Shown here: positions 8,524-58,688 of the stretch, in pieces
Layout: each line of letters opens with the position of its first letter
Numbering within the stretch: the stretch's first letter is position 1
Program-made: the position numbers and the translations under genes
Notes under the pieces: model-generated
What the model was told of the DNA's origin: nothing
Database searches by the model: none
Seen by the model: the letters and a program-made list of their open reading frames with translations, nothing else
DNA from: Nitrosomonas sp.
Lineage (GTDB): Bacteria; Pseudomonadota; Gammaproteobacteria; Burkholderiales; Nitrosomonadaceae
Reading direction: 5' to 3'
DNA: 64,000 nt
Assembly: GCA_020446045.1 (NCBI GenBank)
Contig: JAGRFM010000004.1
Location: 17,330 to 81,329 of the forward strand

Positions 8524-11500
8524 TCATATCCGTCTTTCCCGCAACATTTCATAAAGCCTCCCCGGCCCAAGCAGCGTTTCTTTTAATCCATTCCTCACCC
8601 GTTCCGAATCTAATGCCTGCTTGCTCATGGTGCTGTGAGCTGCCAGTGCATCCATGATGGCATTCATGAGTTCTTCAGAAAGATCGGGGGAATTTGCAAA
8701 CTGCTCTTTGGAATTATTCGCCGCCTGCTGAACAAGTATGTCTGATTCCAGCAGTTTTCCTTTGATGACATTATTCACGTAGATTAGACGGTCGTTTTCG
8801 GTTATGTCACCTTCAAACAGGTCATTCACTCTGGCAATAATCTCGTAGAGGTAAGCTTTCTCCTTCTCCTGTACAGAACCGCTGCCTGATTCGCTTAGTG
8901 GTTTCAGCTTGGGATAGTCACCATCGTTTAACGGAAGTGCTCTTTTACCTTGATTCTTCAGCGTATGGTGGGTGAGTATCACTTTCGAAAGATCAATGCC
9001 TTCACGTTCACGCCCAAATTCCAGCAACGGCAACAGGCGTTTGTAGAAAATGAAACGTTTTTCAATAGCGGTGTTGCCATAGTCAAATATCTGTGACAGA
9101 AATGCATACATTCTTTGGAATGCCGTCATATCATGCTTGAATAAAATGAGCGCATTTAATTCGTTCTGAGCTTCTTCAATAGCCTTGGGGTCATCTTTAC
9201 CCTTGGCAGCTTTTAGTTTTTGCTGAGCAGCTCTGTAGTGATTCAGAAGGCGGTATACTACGGGTTCCAAAGCTGCTGCCAGATCGCTTTGTCTGGATTT
9301 TGGATTAAGCTCGACTTCAACAACACGATTCACCTCAAAGTCATCGTAATAGCCAGCCGCATCCAGTTTCATGCGTAAATCGTACACAAGATGGGGATCA
9401 GTTACGTTCGAGAGTTCTGCAGTATCGTAGTAGGTTCTGAATGCCCCCAATATTTCTTCCGGGTCGTTCACGAAATCCACCACATAAGTGGTATCTTTGC
9501 CGGGATGAGCACGGTTCAATCTGGATAAAGTCTGTACCGCCGCAATACCCGCCAAACGCTTATCGACATACATGCCACACAGCAAGGGTTGGTCGAATCC
9601 GGTTTGAAACTTGTTGGCAACCAGCAAGATTTGATATTCGTCCGTAGCAAAGGCTTCCCGGATGTCCCGCTTCCTTAAATCGGGGTTCAGGTGATGACTG
9701 GTTTCGGTGAAGGAATCAGGGCCGGATTGTGAATCGTTGACTTCCCCCGAAAAAGCAACCAGCGTCTTGATGCTGTAGCCTTGTGATTTAATTTAGCTGT
9801 CGATGGCCAGTTGCCAGCGAACGGCTTCAAGGCGGCTGGATACGACCACCATGGCTTTGCCTCGTCCATCCAGTAGCGGTGCCACATTATCACGGAAATG
9901 TTCCACGACCACCTGAACTTTCTGACTGATATTGTATGGATGCAGTTTGACCCATCGCATAATGCCTTTGAGTGCTTCGCTGCGTTCCACTTCCTTTTCA
10001 TCGAATTCCTTACCGTCATGGGCCAGCTTGAATGCCAGCTTATACGGCGTGTAGTTCTGCAATACATCTAGAATAAAACCTTCTTCAATCGCCTGACGCA
10101 TGGAATAGACATGAAACGGGGCTGGAAGGTTATCATCACTGGCGGGCAAATCGGGATTGGGTCGTCTGCCAAACAATTCCAGTGTTTTTGCCTTGGGAGT
10201 GGCGGTAAAGGCCACATAACTAATGCAATTGTCTTCAGTCCGTGCCGCCATTTGTGCAGCCAGTAAATCTTCAGTACTGATTTCCCCGCCATCGTTGAGT
10301 TCTTCAAGTTCCTGAGCTGATAAAACCGCTTTGAGCTTGGCTGCAGCTTCCCCCGTTTGTGAAGAATGAGCTTCATCGGCGATTACGGCAAAACGTTTGC
10401 CTTGTGTCGCTGCCAGTTCCTGCACTGCTTTTAATGCAAAAGGAAAGGTTTGGATAGTACAAACCACTATTTTCTTGCCACTGGATAAAGCTGTTGCCAG
10501 TTCTCCACTTTTACTGACACCTTCGCCTTTGATAGTCGCCACAACTCCGGCGGTGCGTTCAAAATCAAAAATGGCTTCCTGCAGTTGGCTGTCGAGCACA
10601 TTACGATCCGATACCACCAACACGGTATCAAACAGTTTTCGGTGGTGTTCATCATGCAAATCAGCCAGAAAATGCGCCGTCCATGCAATCGAATTGGTTT
10701 TGCCGGAACCGGCTGAGTGTTGTATCAGATATTTTCCACCGGGGCCTTCTTCTAGTGCTGCCGCCAATAGCTTTCGGGTGGCGTCGAGTTGGTGATAACG
10801 TGGAAAAATAATGCTCTTGATCTGCTTTTTGTCATCCTTACGGGTGACCAGATAACGCCCCAGAATTTCCAGCCAGCTATCCCGTGCCCAGACCTCTTCC
10901 CACAAGTATGCAGTACGGTGGCCGCCTCGTTCATTGGGTGGATTGCCTGCTGCACCCTGATTCCCACGATTAAATGGCAGAAAAGTCGTGTGTGGGCCTT
11001 CCAGTTTGGTGGTCATGCGTACTTCGCTATTGCTGACCGCAAAATGTACCAAGGCACCATTCGGAAAAGACAGTAATGGTTCAGCAGCACTCTGGCCTTT
11101 GGAGCGGGGCAGGCGGTCAAAACGGTATTGATCGACGGCATCATCCACCGATTGCGTAAAGTCGCTCTTGAGTTCTACCGTTGCAACTGGTAGACCATTC
11201 AGAAACAACACCAGATCAATGGCATTCTCGTTATGCAGCGAATAACGCAGCTGACGCACCACCCGCAGCCGGTTTGCAGCATAGCGGGTCAGAATATCGG
11301 GATTCATTGCCAAGGCCGGTTTGAATTGGGCCAATTTAAGCGGTTGCCGTAAACCGATCATTTCAATGCCATGACGCAACACATTCAGTGTGCCCCGTTG
11401 ATTGAGGGAGTCACGTAATCGCTCCAATAACACATCTGCTGCCTGTATGCCGTGATTCTTTTGCAGCATTTCCCAGGCTTTGGGTTGAGTGGTTTTTACC

Positions 11501-11640
11501 CACTCTAATATATCTATTGGGAATAATGCACTTGCCCGGTCGTAGGCTTGTGCATCGCCTTGCCCATAAAGCCAGCCGTGATCAGCAAGATAGTCACAGA
11601 TTTCAGTTTCTAAGTTGATTTCTTTATGCAGGTCGCTCAT
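8524..11640 (-). pseudogene. hsdR: Type I restriction enzyme R subunit with an in-frame stop
   Basis: Two open frames in the same phase are separated by one TAA at 9793-9795. Before it lie the nuclease domain (Asp at about 142, ELK at 156-158), helicase Walker A GSGKT (311-315) and the DEAH box. The protein would stop at about residue 615, inside the second RecA-like domain. Reading on past the stop gives the normal sequence (IKSQGYS, then FQTGFDQP and the helical C-terminus) for another 422 residues. The family normally has Tyr at or near this point, and Tyr to TAA needs one base change. The ATG at 11640 is preferred because the peptide MSDLHKEINLE is the usual beginning; it overlaps the upstream HEPN gene by 17 bases. 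It may be a true loss of restriction, a sequencing error, or two separately made fragments. Confidence 0.85.
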
Positions 11641-12256
11641 GAGATTTCGGGTTATTGCGATACATGTAGTCAATCAAATCACGCACAATTTCGAGAAGAC
11701 CTGACCAAGGTAAAGCGTCAAATGGATCGCCGTGGGCTAAAGAATTTCTAATGCCCACGAGCGTTCCAGTCTGATCTATTTTACCTTCTTGATTAATCTG
11801 TCTAACACGATACAAGTTTGAAACAACAGGGCCACCATACTTTTGAAAAATTGGGAGCTTTTCATCTACAAGCTCATCATGCTTAACCATATATTCTAGG
11901 CCTTGCTTCAAAAATGCATGTATTTGTTTTCTGGGATTTTTATCTTTATAGGCATTCATATAAATATCCTTAAGTGCTAGCTCCAATGCTGCTAAAGCAG
12001 TCAGTTCTCCAGCCTTAATAATATCCATATCAAACCATGACAAAAAATATAGTCGCATTGCTCTTTCATATTTTTGTGCAACAACTTGAGGTACTTGGCG
12101 GTTCAATGATAATTTAGCCACAAAGTTACACCATTCGTTTATCTCATAGAAAATATGTGGCTCTACTACACTTTTTGTACCAGGCCAGAATATTTGTAAT
12201 GGGTTAGCGGATCGGTCTATAGAAGTGCTGAAAATATCGTTATTATCGCTTTTCAT
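11624..12256 (-). CDS. HEPN-motif protein encoded inside the hsd operon
   Basis: The 210-residue, mostly helical protein has the motif RNSLAH at residues 170-175. This fits the Rx4-6H signature of HEPN ribonucleases, with the usual Asn after Arg. No other domain is apparent. It is translated from an ATGA overlap with hsdS and overlaps the hsdR start by 17 bases, so it is an integral operon member. In the EcoprrI locus of E. coli the anticodon nuclease PrrC, which has a C-terminal HEPN domain, is encoded at the same place between hsdS and hsdR. This protein lacks the N-terminal ABC ATPase part of PrrC. RNase activity is inferred from the motif. It could also be a non-catalytic HEPN protein. 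Confidence 0.75.
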   Translation of the reverse strand: MKSDNNDIFSTSIDRSANPLQIFWPGTKSVVEPHIFYEINEWCNFVAKLSLNRQVPQVVAQKYERAMRLYFLSWFDMDIIKAGELTALAALELALKDIYMNAYKDKNPRKQIHAFLKQGLEYMVKHDELVDEKLPIFQKYGGPVVSNLYRVRQINQEGKIDQTGTLVGIRNSLAHGDPFDALPWSGLLEIVRDLIDYMYRNNPKSHERPA

Positions 12257-47958: not shown

Positions 47959-48549
47959 ATGATGAAAAAGCCAAAGTGGGGTGGACAGCGTGTTGGTGCA
48001 GGTCGAAAACGTGCCGCGGAGCCGACGGTTACTGTCCGTGTGCCTGTCAGCAGCAAGGAAACCGTTATGCAGTGGGTGCGGCAACTTAAGGTTGCATCGC
48101 CCATGCAACCTGTTCGTATTCCGGTATGGATGGAAGTTTCACAACTGGCGTTGCAGACTGCACCCCGATTATTTCCGTTGATGAGTCATTCCGTGCGCGC
48201 CGGTTTTCCTTCCCCGGCAGATGATTATGTGGAAAAGCGTATTGATCTGAATGAAGAGCTCATCCAGCATCGCGAGGCTACTTTTTTTCTGCGTGTCAGT
48301 GGACATTCGATGGTCAATGCCGGTATAGACGATGGTGATGAATTGATCGTTGACCGTGCGATTACTCCTGGGCATAACCGTATCGTCGTCGCTGCGGTCG
48401 ATGGCGAGTTGACCGTTAAACGCTTTTACCGGCGCAATGGCGTCGTCAAACTGATTGCAGAAAACCCGGATTATCCGGATATCGAATTCAAAAACGAACA
48501 GGAAATGATGATATGGGGTGTCGTCACCCGGGTGATTAAATCGGTATGA
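47959..48549 (+). CDS. umuD: UmuD-like self-cleaving polymerase V accessory protein with N-terminal extension
   Basis: The 196-residue protein has an S24 peptidase fold with cleavage site AG (81-82), catalytic Ser117 (SGHSM) and Lys154 (LTVKRF). UmuD of E. coli has 139 residues. The extra part here (about 1-57) includes GGQRVGAGRKRAAEPTVTVR, a basic motif seen in small DNA-binding or phage-type proteins. No CTGT-N8-ACAG LexA box is seen in the 109 bases upstream. It overlaps umuC by 4 bases. Confidence 0.88.
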   Translation: MMKKPKWGGQRVGAGRKRAAEPTVTVRVPVSSKETVMQWVRQLKVASPMQPVRIPVWMEVSQLALQTAPRLFPLMSHSVRAGFPSPADDYVEKRIDLNEELIQHREATFFLRVSGHSMVNAGIDDGDELIVDRAITPGHNRIVVAAVDGELTVKRFYRRNGVVKLIAENPDYPDIEFKNEQEMMIWGVVTRVIKSV

Positions 48550-49826
48550 ATATATTCGCGCTGGTTGACGGCAACAATTTTTACGTTTCCTGCGAACGGG
48601 TATTTAATCCCGCTTTGATCAATCGGCCCGTTGTCGTATTGTCCAATAATGACGGTTGTGCAGTCGCGCGTTCTGAAGAAGCCAAAGCATTAGGCATCAA
48701 AATGGGGGTGCCCTGGTTTCAGGTGAAATCGCTGGCAAAAAGGCATGATGTTATTGCGTTGTCGTCAAATTATGCGCTCTACGCCGATATGAGCAATCGC
48801 ATGATGACGTTGCTGGGGCAATTGGCGCCGCATCAGGAGATCTATTCGATTGATGAATGCTTTTTGGGGTTCGATGGTTTGAATACGGATTTAACCCGGC
48901 ACGGCCAGATTATCCGCCAGCGGATAAAGCACTGGCTTGGGTTGCCGGTATGTGTCGGCATTGGTCCGACAAAAACGCTGGCGAAACTCGCCAACCATAT
49001 CGCCAAAAAACAACCACATTGGAACGGTGTATGTGATCTGGGCGTTTTGTCCGGGCCGGTATTGGATCGGCTGTTGGCTGTTGTTGATGTGGGTGATGTC
49101 TGGGGGATCGGCCGCCGTACCCGGGAAAAATTGAGCCGGTTGAATATCAACACAGCTTTGGCGCTCAAGCAAGCGGATACCGATTTAATCGGCAGTCTGT
49201 TTCCAGTAACGATCAAACGTACCGTAATGGAATTACGCGGTGTTTCCGTATTGCGGCTCGATGAAGTCATTCCGCCTCGGCAGCAGATTCTATGCAGCCG
49301 TACTTTTGGTATGCCGGTTACTCAACACACCGAACTCCGGGAGGCGGTAACCAGTTATATTACCCGGGGGGCGGAAAAGCTGCGCGGGCAATCATCGCTG
49401 GCCCAGGCCGTTCATGTTTATATTCGAACCAATCCGCATCGCAAAAAAGATGCGCAGTATCATCAAGGCATTACCATTGCGTTGACAGAACCGACCAGCG
49501 ACACAATCAAACTGGTGCAAGCGGGTTTATGGGGGTTGCAGCGTATCTACCGTCCCGGCTATCGTTATAACAAAGCGGGTATTATGCTGATGAATCTGAT
49601 TCCCGTCAGTTTGCGGCAGGCAGCATTAGTGACGGATGACAAATCCGGAATGCACAAAACCGCGTTGCTCACGGAAACAATTGATGCCGTCAATCGGAGA
49701 ATGGGTAGAGATGCCTTGTTTCTGGCGGGAGCGGGAATAGCAAAATGCTGGCATATGAGGCGGCAGTATAAATCCCTTGGTTACACGACCGACTGGAAAG
49801 AACTGGCGGTTGCGTATTGTCATTGA
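48546..49826 (+). CDS. umuC: DNA polymerase V catalytic subunit UmuC
   Basis: The 426-residue Y-family polymerase has the start FALVDGNNFYVSCERVFNP, metal-binding YSIDECFL and a C-terminal clamp-binding region. It carries out error-prone lesion bypass with cleaved UmuD. All catalytic residues are visible. It is translated by ATGA coupling from umuD. Confidence 0.95.
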   Translation: MNIFALVDGNNFYVSCERVFNPALINRPVVVLSNNDGCAVARSEEAKALGIKMGVPWFQVKSLAKRHDVIALSSNYALYADMSNRMMTLLGQLAPHQEIYSIDECFLGFDGLNTDLTRHGQIIRQRIKHWLGLPVCVGIGPTKTLAKLANHIAKKQPHWNGVCDLGVLSGPVLDRLLAVVDVGDVWGIGRRTREKLSRLNINTALALKQADTDLIGSLFPVTIKRTVMELRGVSVLRLDEVIPPRQQILCSRTFGMPVTQHTELREAVTSYITRGAEKLRGQSSLAQAVHVYIRTNPHRKKDAQYHQGITIALTEPTSDTIKLVQAGLWGLQRIYRPGYRYNKAGIMLMNLIPVSLRQAALVTDDKSGMHKTALLTETIDAVNRRMGRDALFLAGAGIAKCWHMRRQYKSLGYTTDWKELAVAYCH

Positions 49827-51877: not shown

Positions 51878-54592
51878 GTGGCCAGCGTACCAAACGAAAT
51901 TAATACAGAAAATACCGCAACAGTGCAAGCTGATACGCCATCAACCCGGGTGCTCGGGTTAGATAAATTCAATCAATTACCCCAGGAAAAGAAAATAGGC
52001 ATTATGGTTGTTGCTGCGGCAACCATTGCGATGTTGGCCGGCGCTTGGATGTGGAGTCAGTCACCTGATTATCGGGTTTTGTTTGCTAATATCTCAGACC
52101 ATGACGGCGCATCGATCATGAATGCACTGGAACAATCCAATGTGCCGTATAAATTGTCAGGCGGTGGTAGTGCTATTCTGGTGCCGGGCGACCAGGTGCA
52201 TGAAATTAGGCTGCGGCTTGCAGGACAGGGATTGCCACGTAGTGGTTTGGCCGGGTTTGAGTTAATGGAAAACCAAAAATTCGGCACCAGCCAATTTCTG
52301 GAGCAGATCAATTATCAGCGTGCGCTGGAAGGTGAGTTGTCACGTTCGGTTCAGTCATTGGCGGCAGTTCAAAGTGCACGCGTTCATTTAGCCATTTCAA
52401 AACCATCGGTTTTTGCCAGAGAACGACAACAACCTACCGTTTCTGTATTGCTCAATCTATATCCAGGACGTGTGCTTAACGATGAACAAGTGAGTGCCAT
52501 TGTGCATCTTGTTTCGAGCAGTATTCCCAATTTGCCGACCAAAAATGTCACGGTTGTTGATCAAAATGGCAATTTACTTAGTGAACAGGCAAGCAAAAAA
52601 GAATCAAAGTTCAACGCTCAACAGCTGGAATATGTACATGACATTGAAAGAAACTACGCGAAGCGTATAGAAACGATATTATCGCCCATTACCGGAAGCG
52701 CCAACGTGCGCGCGCAGGTAACGGCTGATTTGGATTTTTCCCGTATTGAACGAGCTGAAGAAATTTACCGGCCAAACAATACTCCGGATGATCCGGCTTC
52801 AATTCGCAGCCAGCAAACAATGGAATCGTTATCCACCGGCAATAAGTTGGACGGCGGCATCCCAGGTGCGTTGACCAATCGTCCACCGGAACCAGCTATT
52901 GCGCCCATTGAACTTGGCGAAGAAGATGGTGAAAAAGAACCTGATCCGTTACCAACCGATAAACGTAAAGAAGCGACGATAAATTATGAAGTTGATAAAA
53001 CGGTTCAGCATACACAATTGCCGACAGGTAATATTAAACGGTTGTCAGCGGCAGTTGTCGTCAACTATCGCAGAACTGTCGATGAGGAAGGTAATGCCAT
53101 CCATATACCGCTTTCCGAAGAGGAAATCCAGGAAATCAATCAACTCGTCAGAGATGCCATGGGTTATAACGAGGAACGGGGTGATACGTTAACGGTGACT
53201 AACAGTTTGTTCAGTGATGTTGATGACGGTTTGATTGTTCCACTATGGAAAGATCCTGACGTCATTACGATAGGAATGGAAATCGGAAAGCAATTAATCA
53301 TTGCAATTATAGTGCTGTTTTTCCTGCTGAAAGTGTTGAAGCCATTCCTGAAATCGCTGACACAGGATCCGGAACAGGAAAGAAAAGAAGCGGCGCAATT
53401 AACGGATAAAACGGGAGCAGGGGAAGGCGGTGGGCAGAATGTACAGTTTGCACCGGACGGTACGCCTTTGTTGAATCAGGAATCTGCAGAAGAAGCCATG
53501 AAAAAAGAGCAGCTTGAGAAGGAATTGCAAAAAATCAGGCAAATGGCTGTTGATGAGCCGGCTATTGTGGCCAGTGTCGTAAAAGAATGGGTGAATATGG
53601 ATAATGACGGTGTAAAAAAGAGTGCCATTTTGCTCATGTCACTTGGTGAGCAGGAAGCTTCATCGGTATTCAAGTTTCTGTCGCCAAAAGAGGTTCAGAA
53701 ATTGGGAACGGCCATGTCAACGCTGAATAATATTAATCAGAACGAGATTGTGGACGTCGTTAATGAGTTCAACGAGCAGGCAGCTGGGAAAACAGCATTA
53801 GGACATGATGCTAGCGAATATATCCGCAAAGTGTTGACTAATGCACTGGGGGATGAGAAAGCGGCGAACCTAATAGATCGTATCTTGCATGGAGGCGATA
53901 CCAGTGGTATCGAAGGGCTCAAGTGGATGGATGCGCCATCTATTGTTGAATTAATCAAAAATGAACATCCTCAGATTATTGCCACCATCCTGGTACACCT
54001 TGAGCGTGATCATGCCAGTGAAATACTCAGTCTATTTACGGAACGGTTACGTAACGACACGTTATTACGTATTGCCACTTTGGATAGCATCCAGCCGGAT
54101 GCGTTAAGAGAATTGAACGACGTGCTTACAAAATTATTATCCGGTAGTACTAATATTCGTAAAGCGCCAATGGGTGGTGTACGAACGGCGGCTGAAATTC
54201 TTAATTTTGTACCTACGGCACAAGAAACCAGTGTTATCGATAATATAAAGAAATATGACGAGGATCTGGCACAACAAATCATGGATGAAATGTTTGTGTT
54301 CGATAATCTGGCTGATGTTGACGATCAGGGTATTCAATTGTTGCTGAGAGAAGTTCAATCCGAATCACTGGTAATTGCATTGAAAGGTGCGCAGGAAGAG
54401 GTTCGAGAGAAAATCTTCAGAAATATGTCCAAGCGAGCTGTTGAAGCACTTAAAGAAGATCTCGAAGGACGGGGGCCAGTACGTATATCCGAAGTTGAAG
54501 CAGAGCAGAAAGAAATTCTTAAAGTACTGCGCCAATTGGCTGAAAGTGGGCAGATTGTTTTGGGTGGAAAGGGTGAGGACAGCTATGTTTAA
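51878..54592 (+). CDS. fliF-fliG: Natural FliF-FliG fusion (MS ring and rotor switch protein)
   Basis: One frame of 904 codons covers both proteins without a stop. Residues 1-573 are FliF: first membrane helix about 39-59, ring-building motifs with GLPRSGLAGFE and SLAAVQSARVHLA, second helix about 465-485, and a cytoplasmic tail ending VVKEWVN. Residues 574-904 are a full-length FliG starting MDNDGVKKSAILLMSLGEQEA, with the EHPQ motif (NEHPQIIATIL) and the C-terminal torque domain. The joint is exactly where the fliF stop and fliG start normally lie. The ATG at 53597 could still allow internal initiation, but no clear ribosome binding site precedes it. The start is GTG with aggag 7 bases upstream. 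Confidence 0.93.
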   Translation: MASVPNEINTENTATVQADTPSTRVLGLDKFNQLPQEKKIGIMVVAAATIAMLAGAWMWSQSPDYRVLFANISDHDGASIMNALEQSNVPYKLSGGGSAILVPGDQVHEIRLRLAGQGLPRSGLAGFELMENQKFGTSQFLEQINYQRALEGELSRSVQSLAAVQSARVHLAISKPSVFARERQQPTVSVLLNLYPGRVLNDEQVSAIVHLVSSSIPNLPTKNVTVVDQNGNLLSEQASKKESKFNAQQLEYVHDIERNYAKRIETILSPITGSANVRAQVTADLDFSRIERAEEIYRPNNTPDDPASIRSQQTMESLSTGNKLDGGIPGALTNRPPEPAIAPIELGEEDGEKEPDPLPTDKRKEATINYEVDKTVQHTQLPTGNIKRLSAAVVVNYRRTVDEEGNAIHIPLSEEEIQEINQLVRDAMGYNEERGDTLTVTNSLFSDVDDGLIVPLWKDPDVITIGMEIGKQLIIAIIVLFFLLKVLKPFLKSLTQDPEQERKEAAQLTDKTGAGEGGGQNVQFAPDGTPLLNQESAEEAMKKEQLEKELQKIRQMAVDEPAIVASVVKEWVNMDNDGVKKSAILLMSLGEQEASSVFKFLSPKEVQKLGTAMSTLNNINQNEIVDVVNEFNEQAAGKTALGHDASEYIRKVLTNALGDEKAANLIDRILHGGDTSGIEGLKWMDAPSIVELIKNEHPQIIATILVHLERDHASEILSLFTERLRNDTLLRIATLDSIQPDALRELNDVLTKLLSGSTNIRKAPMGGVRTAAEILNFVPTAQETSVIDNIKKYDEDLAQQIMDEMFVFDNLADVDDQGIQLLLREVQSESLVIALKGAQEEVREKIFRNMSKRAVEALKEDLEGRGPVRISEVEAEQKEILKVLRQLAESGQIVLGGKGEDSYV

Positions 54593-54643: not shown

Positions 54644-55426
54644 ATGGAAACGACCACAGTCATACCAAAAGACAAATTGAAGTCATGCCAGCTGTGGCAG
54701 TGGGATACTTTGGAATCATCGGAATCTAATGCTGTTTCGAAGCGTCATGAAAAAGAGGGGTCGGTAGAGAAGTATCCCATGGATCATATAAATGAGAATG
54801 ACCATGCAGATAAAGAAAAATCAACCGAACCTTCAGAAGCAGAAGTTACTGCCATTGTTCAGCAAGCCAGGGAGAGTGGTCATAAACAAGGGCATGATGA
54901 AGGATTAAATAAAGGATATCAGGAAGGCTATGGTAATGGGTATCAGGAAGGGCACAACAAGGGGTTTCAGGAAGGCCGGCAGCAAGGTGAAATCGAGATA
55001 AATAATGTGATCACGCAGGTAAGGGGAGCATTTGAAAATCTGGATGAACAACTGCAAACATTAGATCAGCAAGTTGCACAAAACCTTTTAGCACTGGCAA
55101 TTGACTTGACCAAGAAAATGACGACACAAGCACTTGTGATACAACCCGAATTGATTTTGTCCATTGTGCAGGATGCCATTTGCCAGCTTCCAAATACTAT
55201 GCAGCACTTACGCCTATTTTTAAATCCCGGAGACGCCAGGATTGTGCGTCAGTATCTGAATGATCAACTTACACAGGAAAACTGGGAGATCTGTGAAGAT
55301 GACCAGATGATTCAGGGGGGGTGTCGAGTAGAAGCGGGTGGTAGTGAAGTCGATGCGAGTATTGAAACGCGTTGGCGCCGGATTTTAGCAACTATAGGTC
55401 AGAAAAATGACTGGATTGAGAAATAA
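54644..55426 (+). CDS. fliH: Flagellar assembly protein FliH
   Basis: The 260-residue protein has an acidic N-terminal part and a glycine-repeat helix (about 84-118, GxxxG units such as [19 protein letters not shown]). A C-terminal V-ATPase-E-like domain follows. FliH dimers bind FliI and tether it to the export gate and C-ring. It overlaps fliI by 20 bases. Confidence 0.9.
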
Positions 55427-56840
55427 CGCCGATCAGCGTAACCACAGTGAGAATTGGTGCAATTATTTAAAAAATTGCAATCAGCTCATTGCTTCATCTG
55501 CACCTATCCTGTCAAGTGGTACAGTTACAAAAATCACCGGATTGGTCATGGAGGCGGTTGGACTTAAACTTGCGGTTGGCAGTAGTTGTACTATCTTTTT
55601 GTTGAACGGCAACAGTATATCGGCTGAAGTGGTCGGTTTCTCGGAAGAAAGACTGTTTTTGATGCCGACGGGTGAAATCTATGGTTTGACGCCGGGTGCC
55701 AAAGTAATTCCTACAGAGGTGGTTGCACAAGCACCTAAAATTGGAACCATGCAATATCCAAGGAGACGCGCATCAGATCAGGCTAAACATGTTAACGTCG
55801 GGCATGGTTTGCTAGGCAGGGTGCTCAATGGTATTGGTGAGCCACTCGATAACCTGGGACCGGTTAAGGCGGAAAAAAATGTACCGCTTTACAGCAGGCC
55901 ATACAATCCGCTCGAACGGATTCCGGTGTCCGAACCTCTGGATGTTGGCGTTCGTGCAATCAATACACTGTTAACTGTCGGTCGTGGTCAGCGTATGGGT
56001 TTGTTCGCGGGCAGTGGTGTGGGTAAGAGTGTATTACTTGGCATGATGGCGCGTTATACCAGTGCCGATGTTATCGTTGTCGGTTTGATCGGTGAGCGCG
56101 GGCGCGAAGTTAAAGAATTTATAGAAAATATACTAGGACAGGAAGGACTTGCACGATCCGTCATTGTGGCGGCGCCAGCTGATACTTCACCATTGTTGCG
56201 ACTGCAGGGGGCTGCCTACGCAACGGCGATCGCAGAATATTTTCGCGACGAAGGAAAACATGTGTTGCTGATTATGGATTCGCTCACGCGATATGCCATG
56301 GCACAACGGGAGATCGCATTGGCTATCGGTGAACCCCCGGCAACAAAAGGTTATCCGCCATCGGTTTTTGCCAAATTACCCCAGTTGGTTGAGCGCGCGG
56401 GTAATGGTAGCAATGACAGTGGTTCTATAACGGCTTTTTATACGGTACTGACTGAAGGTGACGATAACAATGACCCGATAGCTGACAATGCTCGCGCGAT
56501 ACTGGACGGGCATATTGTTCTATCACGCCGGTTGGCGGAGTCCGGGCATTACCCTGCTATTGATATTGAAGCATCAATCAGTCGTGTTATGTCGAGCGTC
56601 GTATCACCTGAACAAATTGAAGCGGCCAGGCAATTCAAAAGTACTTTTTCACGTTATCAACGCAGTTATGATTTGATCAGTGTAGGCGCTTATATGCCAG
56701 GATCGGATCCGGTGCTGGATCAGGCGATACAGCTATATCCCAAACTCGAGAGTTTCCTGCAACAAGGCATGACGCAGCAGGAAAACTATACGGATAGCAT
56801 TCAAAAAATGATGGCTTTGTTTGATACAGACAACGCGTAA
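55407..56840 (+). CDS. fliI: Flagellum-specific ATP synthase FliI
   Basis: The 477-residue type III export ATPase has Walker [16 protein letters not shown], Walker [18 protein letters not shown] and the DELSEED-like C-terminal helix region. It unfolds export substrates at the flagellar base with FliH and FliJ. The start inside fliH gives the usual length. Confidence 0.95.
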
Positions 56841-57374: not shown

Positions 57375-58688
57375 ATGTTAAATCAAGTTTTCCCTCAACA
57401 AATACAACCACAAGTCCAATCGTCTGGGCAAGGAAAAAATGATAATGTTCATTCAAACAAATCTGAATCAGAGCAGTTTGATAATATTTTGTCACGTGAA
57501 ATTTCAGCAAAGGAATCAACATCAGCTACTGAAACGAAAAAGGATGCATCCGACAGGAATAATAAGTCGGAAGAAACATCTACTGTTTCTGAGAAGGCAA
57601 ACACTGACAATACTACTGATGCAGCACATACCAATGAATCAGCTGAGACGAATGTAACGGCAACCACAACCACAACCACAACCACAACCACAACCACAAT
57701 CAACAAGTCAGCTGACAACACGCATGCTGCAAATGGAGTGGAAAATCAGCAACTTCAGGGGGCTCAGGTAACATTTACAGAAAATAGTATCAGTGTCGAA
57801 ATAATGCCGCCATTTGCACCTGCAGAAAATTCAACGGTGTTAAAGACTCAAGTTGGACTAAATGATAAAAGTACAGGGATTATGCCAGGCCTTGGGTTAG
57901 CCACCAGCGCATTGATGCAACCTATTCAGGCTGGTTTGCAGCAAGGTTCCATGCAAGATCTGGCTAATGGTGGAAATAATCCATGGCTGGCGTTGCAAGC
58001 TGGACATTCCGGTGACAAATCGGAGTTATCGTCATTCGATGCGGAGAACGGAAGAAATATATTTTCTCGAATAGGAGAAATTGATTCGTCTATAAACGCC
58101 GATTCCGAAATATTTTCCCGAATAGGAGAAATTGACTCGTCTATAAACGCCGATTCCGACATGCCGCAATATATCGGTCAGCCCGGCCTGAATGGCGTAA
58201 CACATAGTGCAAATCAATCTGCACTGCAAACAGCTTCGCACTCCGTCAGTTTGGACACTCAAATGGGACAACCCAAATGGGGTAATGACTTTGCACAGAA
58301 AATTGTATGGCTTGCGCATCAACAGCATCAGGTCGCAGAGCTTAAACTGAACCCGGCGCATTTGGGGCCAGTTGAAATTATGTTGAGTCTTGGTGGAGAT
58401 AATGGAACACAGGCGGCAGCGCAATTTGTATCACCGCATCTGGCAGTGCGTGAGGCGATTGAAGCTGCGTTGCCCCGGTTGCGCGAGATGATGGCGGAGA
58501 GCGGGATTCAATTAGGTGATGTAATGGTGGGTGCCGAGTCATTTCAGCACAATGACAAAGGAGAACAATATGGGCATCAGCATGCCAGACACTCAAATCA
58601 AATTGGCGGTCAGGATGAGCCAAATGCCGTTGTTGATGCGCGACTTGTTTCAACCAGACACAACGGAATCGTCAACACATTTGCTTGA
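57375..58688 (+). CDS. fliK: Flagellar hook-length control protein FliK
   Basis: The 437-residue protein has a polar, Thr/Ser/Asn-rich N-terminal ruler part and a conserved C-terminal FliK domain with LKLNPAHLGPVEIMLSL (about 318-400). It sets hook length and switches export specificity. The ruler part contains a (CAACCA)6 array and a 51-bp tandem duplication, listed separately. It ends 15 bases before the convergent sensor kinase. Confidence 0.9.
   Translation: MLNQVFPQQIQPQVQSSGQGKNDNVHSNKSESEQFDNILSREISAKESTSATETKKDASDRNNKSEETSTVSEKANTDNTTDAAHTNESAETNVTATTTTTTTTTTTTINKSADNTHAANGVENQQLQGAQVTFTENSISVEIMPPFAPAENSTVLKTQVGLNDKSTGIMPGLGLATSALMQPIQAGLQQGSMQDLANGGNNPWLALQAGHSGDKSELSSFDAENGRNIFSRIGEIDSSINADSEIFSRIGEIDSSINADSDMPQYIGQPGLNGVTHSANQSALQTASHSVSLDTQMGQPKWGNDFAQKIVWLAHQQHQVAELKLNPAHLGPVEIMLSLGGDNGTQAAAQFVSPHLAVREAIEAALPRLREMMAESGIQLGDVMVGAESFQHNDKGEQYGHQHARHSNQIGGQDEPNAVVDARLVSTRHNGIVNTFA
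57661..57696 (+). repeat. Hexanucleotide (CAACCA)6 array inside fliK
   Basis: Six perfect copies of caacca encode a run of Thr residues. Copy-number change would add or remove two residues per unit without breaking the frame. Confidence 0.9.
58059..58160 (+). repeat. 51-bp tandem duplication inside fliK
   Basis: Two units (58059-58109 and 58110-58160) differ at only three bases. Each encodes the 17-residue word IFSRIGEIDSSINADS plus Glu or Asp. It lengthens the ruler region. Confidence 0.9.

What the first reader, a model, noticed from the sequence alone, without database searches (positions are those of the whole stretch)
51878..54592. Natural fusion of FliF and FliG into one 904-residue rotor protein
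The MS-ring protein FliF (residues 1-573) continues without a stop into a complete FliG (574-904). FliF and FliG normally bind each other through exactly the two ends joined here, and spontaneous fusions in Salmonella are known to give working motors. A natural, full-length fusion fixes a 1:1 ratio of ring to switch subunits and bears on the debated symmetry match. The retained Met at residue 574 leaves open whether free FliG is also made.
Basis: partly seen in the sequence, partly recalled or inferred. Interest (0 to 1): 0.8.

Follow-up and report, generated by a model that had tools for sequence, protein, structure and literature searches.

The report
FliF and FliG fused by one-base deletion
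In this Nitrosomonas-like genome two neighbouring flagellar motor genes read as one long gene because a single base is missing where they normally overlap; the relatives compared keep the two genes apart, so this is either a rare natural version of a fusion known from the laboratory or a one-base sequencing slip.

Summary
In detail: 51878-54592 (+) is one open frame of 904 codons, FliF (1-573) running into a complete FliG (574-904), with no other copy found in the genome. In the closest relatives (ACE_PRO54, slu-bin5, G002) fliF ends 8 nt inside fliG in another frame; the window lacks one base just before the fliG ATG at 53597. None of 84 loci examined (61 distinct) is fused; in the printed rows of three FliG_N surveys only the window's frame exceeds 479 aa. 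For a real change: no other broken gene seen in 36 kb compared, no homopolymer at the site, intact neighbouring fli genes. Against: a singleton, no compensatory changes, no reads. Laboratory fusions (the Vibrio one made by the same one-base deletion) rotate, but E. coli's is clockwise-biased; Chlamydia has a natural partial fusion. So the kind is known. I think the fusion is probably real (about 0.6); a base error is the main rival.

The parts
51878..54592 (+). fliF-fliG fused open reading frame, 904 aa, GTG start, TAA stop
   Evidence: NCBIfam fliF and fliG equivalogs in one frame
52058..52582 (+). YscJ_FliF domain (residues 61-235)
   Evidence: Pfam PF01514, E 8.3e-69
52679..53212 (+). FliF C-terminal Pfam domain (residues 268-445)
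   Evidence: Pfam PF08345, E 6.1e-44
53540..53596 (+). FliF C-terminal tail (residues 555-573; the FliG-binding end in other species), two residues shorter than in the sister FliF proteins
   Evidence: aligned tails; FliG-binding role from paper passages, not tested here
53589..53599 (+). junction: GGGTG Shine-Dalgarno-like stretch (53589-53593), last FliF codon AAT (53594-53596), retained fliG ATG (53597-53599); one base fewer than the sister loci
53597..54592 (+). FliG part (residues 574-904): FliG_N 578-676, FliG_M 688-758, FliG_C 789-895
   Evidence: Pfam PF14842, PF14841, PF01706
51107..51430 (-). fliE, divergent neighbour
   Evidence: Pfam PF02049, profile 7-89/89
54644..55426 (+). fliH
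   Evidence: Pfam PF02108, profile 3-128/128
55407..56840 (+). fliI (export ATPase; the gene name is recalled from the family, Pfam gives T3SS/ATP synthase ATPase)
   Evidence: Pfam PF00006, PF18269
56861..57316 (+). fliJ
   Evidence: Pfam PF02050, profile 1-123/123
57375..58688 (+). fliK
   Evidence: Pfam PF02120, profile 2-83/85

Best explanation
A single-base deletion in the short overlap of fliF and fliG, on the lineage leading to this Nitrosomonas-like genome, took the fliF stop out of frame and joined the two genes. Shown: one 904-codon frame holding both proteins, and sister lineages that are unfused with one base more at that point. Inferred: the cell translates one protein of about 100 kDa (estimate from length) whose FliF part builds the MS ring while the attached FliG_N folds onto a FliF tail, as in fused laboratory rotors; MS ring and FliG layer then have equal subunit number, and FliM/FliN and the stators attach as usual. 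By analogy with E. coli and Salmonella I expect a rotating motor with altered (clockwise) switch bias unless compensated elsewhere. Some free FliG may still start at Met574, but without the overlapping stop that could allow re-initiation.
For: One open frame with both proteins' domains; no second fliF or fliG found. L039, L040 and L004 end FliF with VNNG and overlap fliG by 8 nt in another frame; the window has one base fewer there. The tree puts the window as sister to these three (4-row clade 100/100), so the deletion lies on the window's own branch, 0.17 changes per column long. A frame-changing indel at this junction is seen in one other same-genus genome: L028 (G024) has one extra base and stays unfused. 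440 relative ORFs covered 36,167 window bases and flagged no other gene broken in the window; of two flagged rows one is the antisense shadow of this junction, the other traces to a gene split in G002 and whole in the window. No run of three or more equal bases lies at the deletion point; nearest are GGG at 53589 and AAAA at 53581. Against L039, changes by codon position are 86/49/287 in FliF and 27/14/149 in FliG, the pattern of purifying selection. fliE, H, I, J, K have near-complete domains; FliM and two flagellin-N-domain genes are present.
Against: Singleton: 0 of 84 loci (61 distinct) fused. FliG_N was found in 95 of 125 family genomes, 321 of 398 phylum genomes (row list cut) and 102 of 150 order genomes (E 1e-10); in every printed row except G000 the frame was at most 393, 479 and 414 aa. 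No reads and no second strain. FliG has 2 private residues (controls up to 23 in 53 rows) and FliM 9 (controls 0-44 in 29 rows): no sign of compensation. An out-of-frame TAA still sits where the sister fliF stops, compatible with recent loss or error, though FliG codons 2-3 constrain it. Next to the junction the selection signal is weaker: 17 synonymous and 17 nonsynonymous codon differences in the last 60 FliF codons, 17 and 12 in the first 60 of FliG. The frameshift scan asks E 1e-10 of each piece, so breaks near gene ends, such as this one, can escape it. Frame-broken FliG occurs in other held genomes (G017 and the one-contig G040; short frames in G345, G612, G628 not examined), so errors or decay in this gene are not unheard of.
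Confidence: 0.6

Rival explanations
1. The fusion is a one-base sequencing or assembly error; the organism has ordinary overlapping fliF and fliG like its relatives.
For: Single-base difference in a single draft genome of 242 contigs; all 61 other distinct loci unfused; the sister stop triplet still present out of frame. In each of the three closest relatives 14 single-base deletion positions would give a fused frame in silico, so the target is small but not unique. Frame-broken FliG in other held genomes.
Against: No other gene flagged as broken in the window over 36 kb compared (breaks near gene ends can be missed); no homopolymer at the site; a frame-changing indel at the same junction exists in G024 without fusion.
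Confidence: 0.33
2. The deletion is real but recent or deleterious (one strain, culture or population variant) and impairs switching or motility; not a settled trait. This overlaps with the best explanation, which does not require fixation.
For: Singleton on one branch; no compensatory changes in FliG or FliM; the E. coli full-length fusion is strongly clockwise-biased (passages).
Against: Neighbouring flagellar genes, FliM and flagellin-like genes are present; laboratory fusions still assemble and rotate.
Confidence: 0.25
3. Free FliG is still made from the internal ATG at 53597 and enters the motor, so that fused and free FliG coexist. This is an addition to the best explanation rather than an alternative.
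For: ATG retained; predicted anti-Shine-Dalgarno pairing -6.1 kcal/mol, against -7.4 for the fliF start, -3.3 for fliH, and -6.5, -7.2 and -10.2 for the fliG starts of L004, L039 and L040.
Against: The overlapping stop that would allow re-initiation is gone; GGGTG is part of the codons for the conserved W-V, so its retention is not evidence of selection for initiation.
Confidence: 0.25

Closest known systems
Spontaneous and engineered FliF-FliG fusions of Salmonella / E. coli
   Same: Whole FliF joined to whole FliG in one chain (full-length type); fused motors assemble and rotate (passages in PMC7355467, PMC10128058, PMC6445934). The primary papers (Francis 1992, Thomas 2001, Kim 2017) were not read; Thomas 2001 is not held.
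   Different: Those are laboratory strains, with a clockwise bias reported for the full-length fusion; here the fusion is in a deposited genome and motor behaviour is unknown.
Vibrio alginolyticus FliFG fusion used for cryo-EM
   Same: [quoted passage not shown] PDB chains 8z4d/8z4g (945 aa, named as both proteins) match the junction region; that they are this construct is my inference.
   Different: Deliberately engineered, His-tagged and overproduced in E. coli.
Chlamydiaceae FliF-FliG fusion (Bergeron 2016, PMC4768692)
   Same: A naturally occurring FliF-FliG fusion (passages).
   Different: Short FliF lacking part of the periplasmic region, fused to a FliG M-like region, in bacteria not thought to be flagellated; the window's fusion has all FliF and FliG domains inside a flagellar cluster.
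Overlapping separate fliF and fliG of Nitrosomonas relatives (ACE_PRO54 L039, slu-bin5 L040, G002 L004)
   Same: Orthologous proteins, 78-81% (FliF) and 88-90% (FliG) identical.
   Different: Two genes overlapping by 8 nt in different frames; FliF ends two residues later.

Membership tests
FliF (MS-ring protein) | YscJ_FliF and FliF_C domains, fliF equivalog score over cut-off | tested here: met
   Pfam; TIGR00206 421.8 bits against cut-off 129.75, model 10-554/555
FliG (switch protein) | FliG_N, FliG_M, FliG_C domains, fliG equivalog score over cut-off | tested here: met
   Pfam; TIGR00207 364.8 bits against 226.7, model 11-337/338. A second FliG model, NF004260, is below its cut-off (90.7 against 550)
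Full-length FliF-FliG fusion (as in laboratory strains) | Both proteins in a single open reading frame | tested here: met
   FliF two residues shorter than in the sisters
Full-length FliF-FliG fusion (as in laboratory strains) | Made as one polypeptide that assembles into rings and a rotating motor | not testable with these tools
   needs protein detection and motility assays
Natural, evolutionarily kept fusion | Shared by more than one genome of a lineage | tested here: not met
   0 of 84 loci (61 distinct) fused; only G000 with a long frame among printed rows. No second strain of the same species was available, so sharing within the species is untested
Natural, evolutionarily kept fusion | Supported by reads across the junction | not testable with these tools
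   reads and coverage not held
Chlamydiaceae-type FliF-FliG fusion | Truncated FliF fused to a FliG M-like region | tested here: not met
   full FliF and all three FliG domains present

The most novel reading that the evidence does not exclude
A free-living, flagellated ammonia oxidiser runs on a naturally fixed, full-length FliF-FliG rotor protein: ring and switch layer are obligately 1:1 and no separate FliG is needed, showing that the motor tolerates in nature what was thought a laboratory construct, possibly with a retuned switch bias.
Probability: 0.35. Interest if true: 0.55.

Novelty: new variant of a known kind. Interest (0 to 1): 0.38.

Why it matters
If the base call is right, this is a natural counterpart of a well-known laboratory fusion. 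It would show that a one-base change can weld the MS ring to the switch ring outside the laboratory, and would offer a natural test of whether fused rotors can switch normally and whether the reported 33:34 ring mismatch can exist in vivo. It also shows that tightly overlapping operon genes lie one indel from a fusion, so single-genome 'fusions' need read support before they are believed.

Tried and rejected
Other candidate fusions: one search listed long frames in G052 (1036), G040 (838) and G017 (893); reading the DNA showed stops between fliF and fliG or a broken fliG in all three, so they are not fusions; the open_frame column there runs across stops.

Compensation: private residues of FliG (2) and FliM (9, within the control range) gave no signature.

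Structure: an AlphaFold model of window residues 513-759 was only moderate (mean pLDDT 71.1, pTM 0.46); its best PDB matches are FliG chains with TM-scores (by query length) of about 0.2-0.3. It predicts a FliF helix ending at the junction Met and a FliG helix starting two residues on, but does not settle how FliF_C packs on FliG_N in the fused chain. Alignments A1 and A2 were discarded because FliF-only rows were placed wrongly.

Mobile origin: no near match in the plasmid collection. Literature searches for a natural full-length fusion in a flagellated bacterium gave listings in which I saw only the Chlamydia case and laboratory fusions; of the 6 papers listed I read passages of 4, and one search returned only unrelated papers. 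Only passages, no whole papers, were read.

Full report
OBSERVATION. The frame 51878-54592 (+) translates to 904 residues without an internal stop. Pfam finds the FliF domains and all three FliG domains in it, and NCBIfam scores the fliF and fliG equivalog models well above cut-off, at residues 25-575 and 578-903. Family searches of the held genome G000 (3.57 Mb, 242 contigs, 97.5% complete) found one FliF and one FliG_C match, both in this frame.

CAUSE. In the relatives fliF and fliG are separate and usually overlap by 8 nt, with fliG in another frame. The three closest sequences (L039 = Nitrosomonas sp. ACE_PRO54, L040 = Nitrosomonas sp. slu-bin5, L004 = G002) end FliF with ...KEWVNNG and start fliG at an ATG inside the last FliF codons. 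The window has one base fewer immediately before the ATG (an A, in the simplest alignment to L040), so that ...KEWVN runs into MDNDG... A maximum-likelihood tree of FliF+FliG (45 rows) makes the window sister to these three with 100/100 support, so the change sits on the window's own branch. The other six rows of the ten-row clade end in VNGNG or VNGGNNG, so the junction had probably lost a codon earlier. G024 (L028) carries one extra base at the same junction and remains unfused.

HOW COMMON. None of 84 loci with both genes (61 distinct sequences, 54 of them with FliG at least 66% identical) is fused: 53 have frame difference 1, 3 have 2, and 5 have 0 with a stop between the genes or a broken fliG. 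FliG_N surveys: 95 of 125 family genomes, 321 of 398 phylum genomes (the row list is cut) and 102 of 150 order genomes (E 1e-10) carry the domain; the frame holding it was 912 aa in G000 and at most 393, 479 and 414 aa in the other printed rows. These surveys overlap in genomes and cover only this phylum. In two MAGs (L041, L048) fliF TAA is followed directly by fliG ATG in the same frame.

REAL OR ERROR. For a real change: 440 ORFs from 21 fetched loci of three relatives, compared with the window, covered 36,167 bases (best match at least 50% identical) and flagged no other gene broken in the window; of two flagged rows one is the antisense shadow of this junction and the other comes from a gene split in G002. 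The scan can miss breaks near gene ends, so it limits the error rate inside genes only. The site has no homopolymer of three or more. By codon position both halves look under purifying selection over their length; next to the junction the signal is weaker (17 synonymous against 17 nonsynonymous codon differences in the last 60 FliF codons against L039, 17 against 12 in the first 60 of FliG). fliE, H, I, J, K have near-complete domains, and FliM and two genes with a flagellin N domain are present. For an error or a transient mutation: a single draft, one base, no relative sharing it, no compensatory burst in FliG or FliM, the sister stop triplet still there out of frame, and frame-broken FliG in other held genomes (G017 and the one-contig G040; short FliG frames in G345, and G612 and G628 were not examined). 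Reads, coverage and a second strain were not available. I weigh these at about 0.6 for a real fused gene; this is a judgement, not a computed value.

MECHANISM. From paper passages: FliF_C forms two helices bound to FliG_N; fused FliF-FliG motors assemble and rotate; the E. coli full-length fusion has a strong clockwise bias, relieved by changes at the FliG_N-FliG_N interface or, in the account of PMC7355467, by changes in FliM_M and FliG_N or a flexible linker; [quoted passage not shown] Inferred for the window: one chain supplies ring and switch subunit, a FliF tail pairs with FliG_N, ring numbers are equal, and switching may be biased. Met574 keeps an ATG and a Shine-Dalgarno-like stretch (-6.1 kcal/mol), so some free FliG cannot be excluded, but the overlapping stop that could allow re-initiation is gone. 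My structure model was not good enough to test the packing.

COMPARED WITH WHAT IS KNOWN. The kind is known: laboratory fusions in Salmonella, E. coli and Vibrio, and a natural but partial fusion in Chlamydiaceae, not thought to be flagellated. What would be new is a natural, full-length fusion in a flagellated bacterium; seven searches of the open library showed me none, but most subscription papers are not held and I read only passages. The symmetry argument is mostly covered already: these papers treat FliF:FliG as 1:1, while one cryo-EM paper reports 33-mer MS rings in 34-mer C rings and no consensus.

VERDICT. Observation confirmed; interpretation partly supported; a new variant of a known kind if the base is right, an ordinary overlap with a one-base error if not.

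Noticed in passing
57375-58688 (+), fliK: A six-base repeat CAACCA x6.5 (57661-57699, a threonine run) and a 51-base tandem duplication (58059-58159) lie inside fliK; they might vary the length of the hook-ruler protein between strains.
   Followed up: no
47959-49826 (+): An S24-peptidase plus Y-family polymerase pair (umuD/umuC type; Pfam) sits next to the flagellar cluster.
   Followed up: partly
L035 (G017:C18:47500-51200): fliG of this same-genus genome is split by a frameshift into two frames; error or decay not resolved.
   Followed up: no
L034 (G040:C1:614500-618800): fliG is frame-broken in a one-contig genome of the order.
   Followed up: no
L041 and L048: In two MAGs fliF TAA is followed directly by fliG ATG in the same frame.
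   Followed up: no
L088 (G002:C14), counterpart of window 9793-11673 (-): The relative's copy of this gene is split in two frames while the window's is whole.
   Followed up: no
L028 (G024): One extra base at the same fliF/fliG junction changes the overlap to TAATG without fusing the genes.
   Followed up: yes
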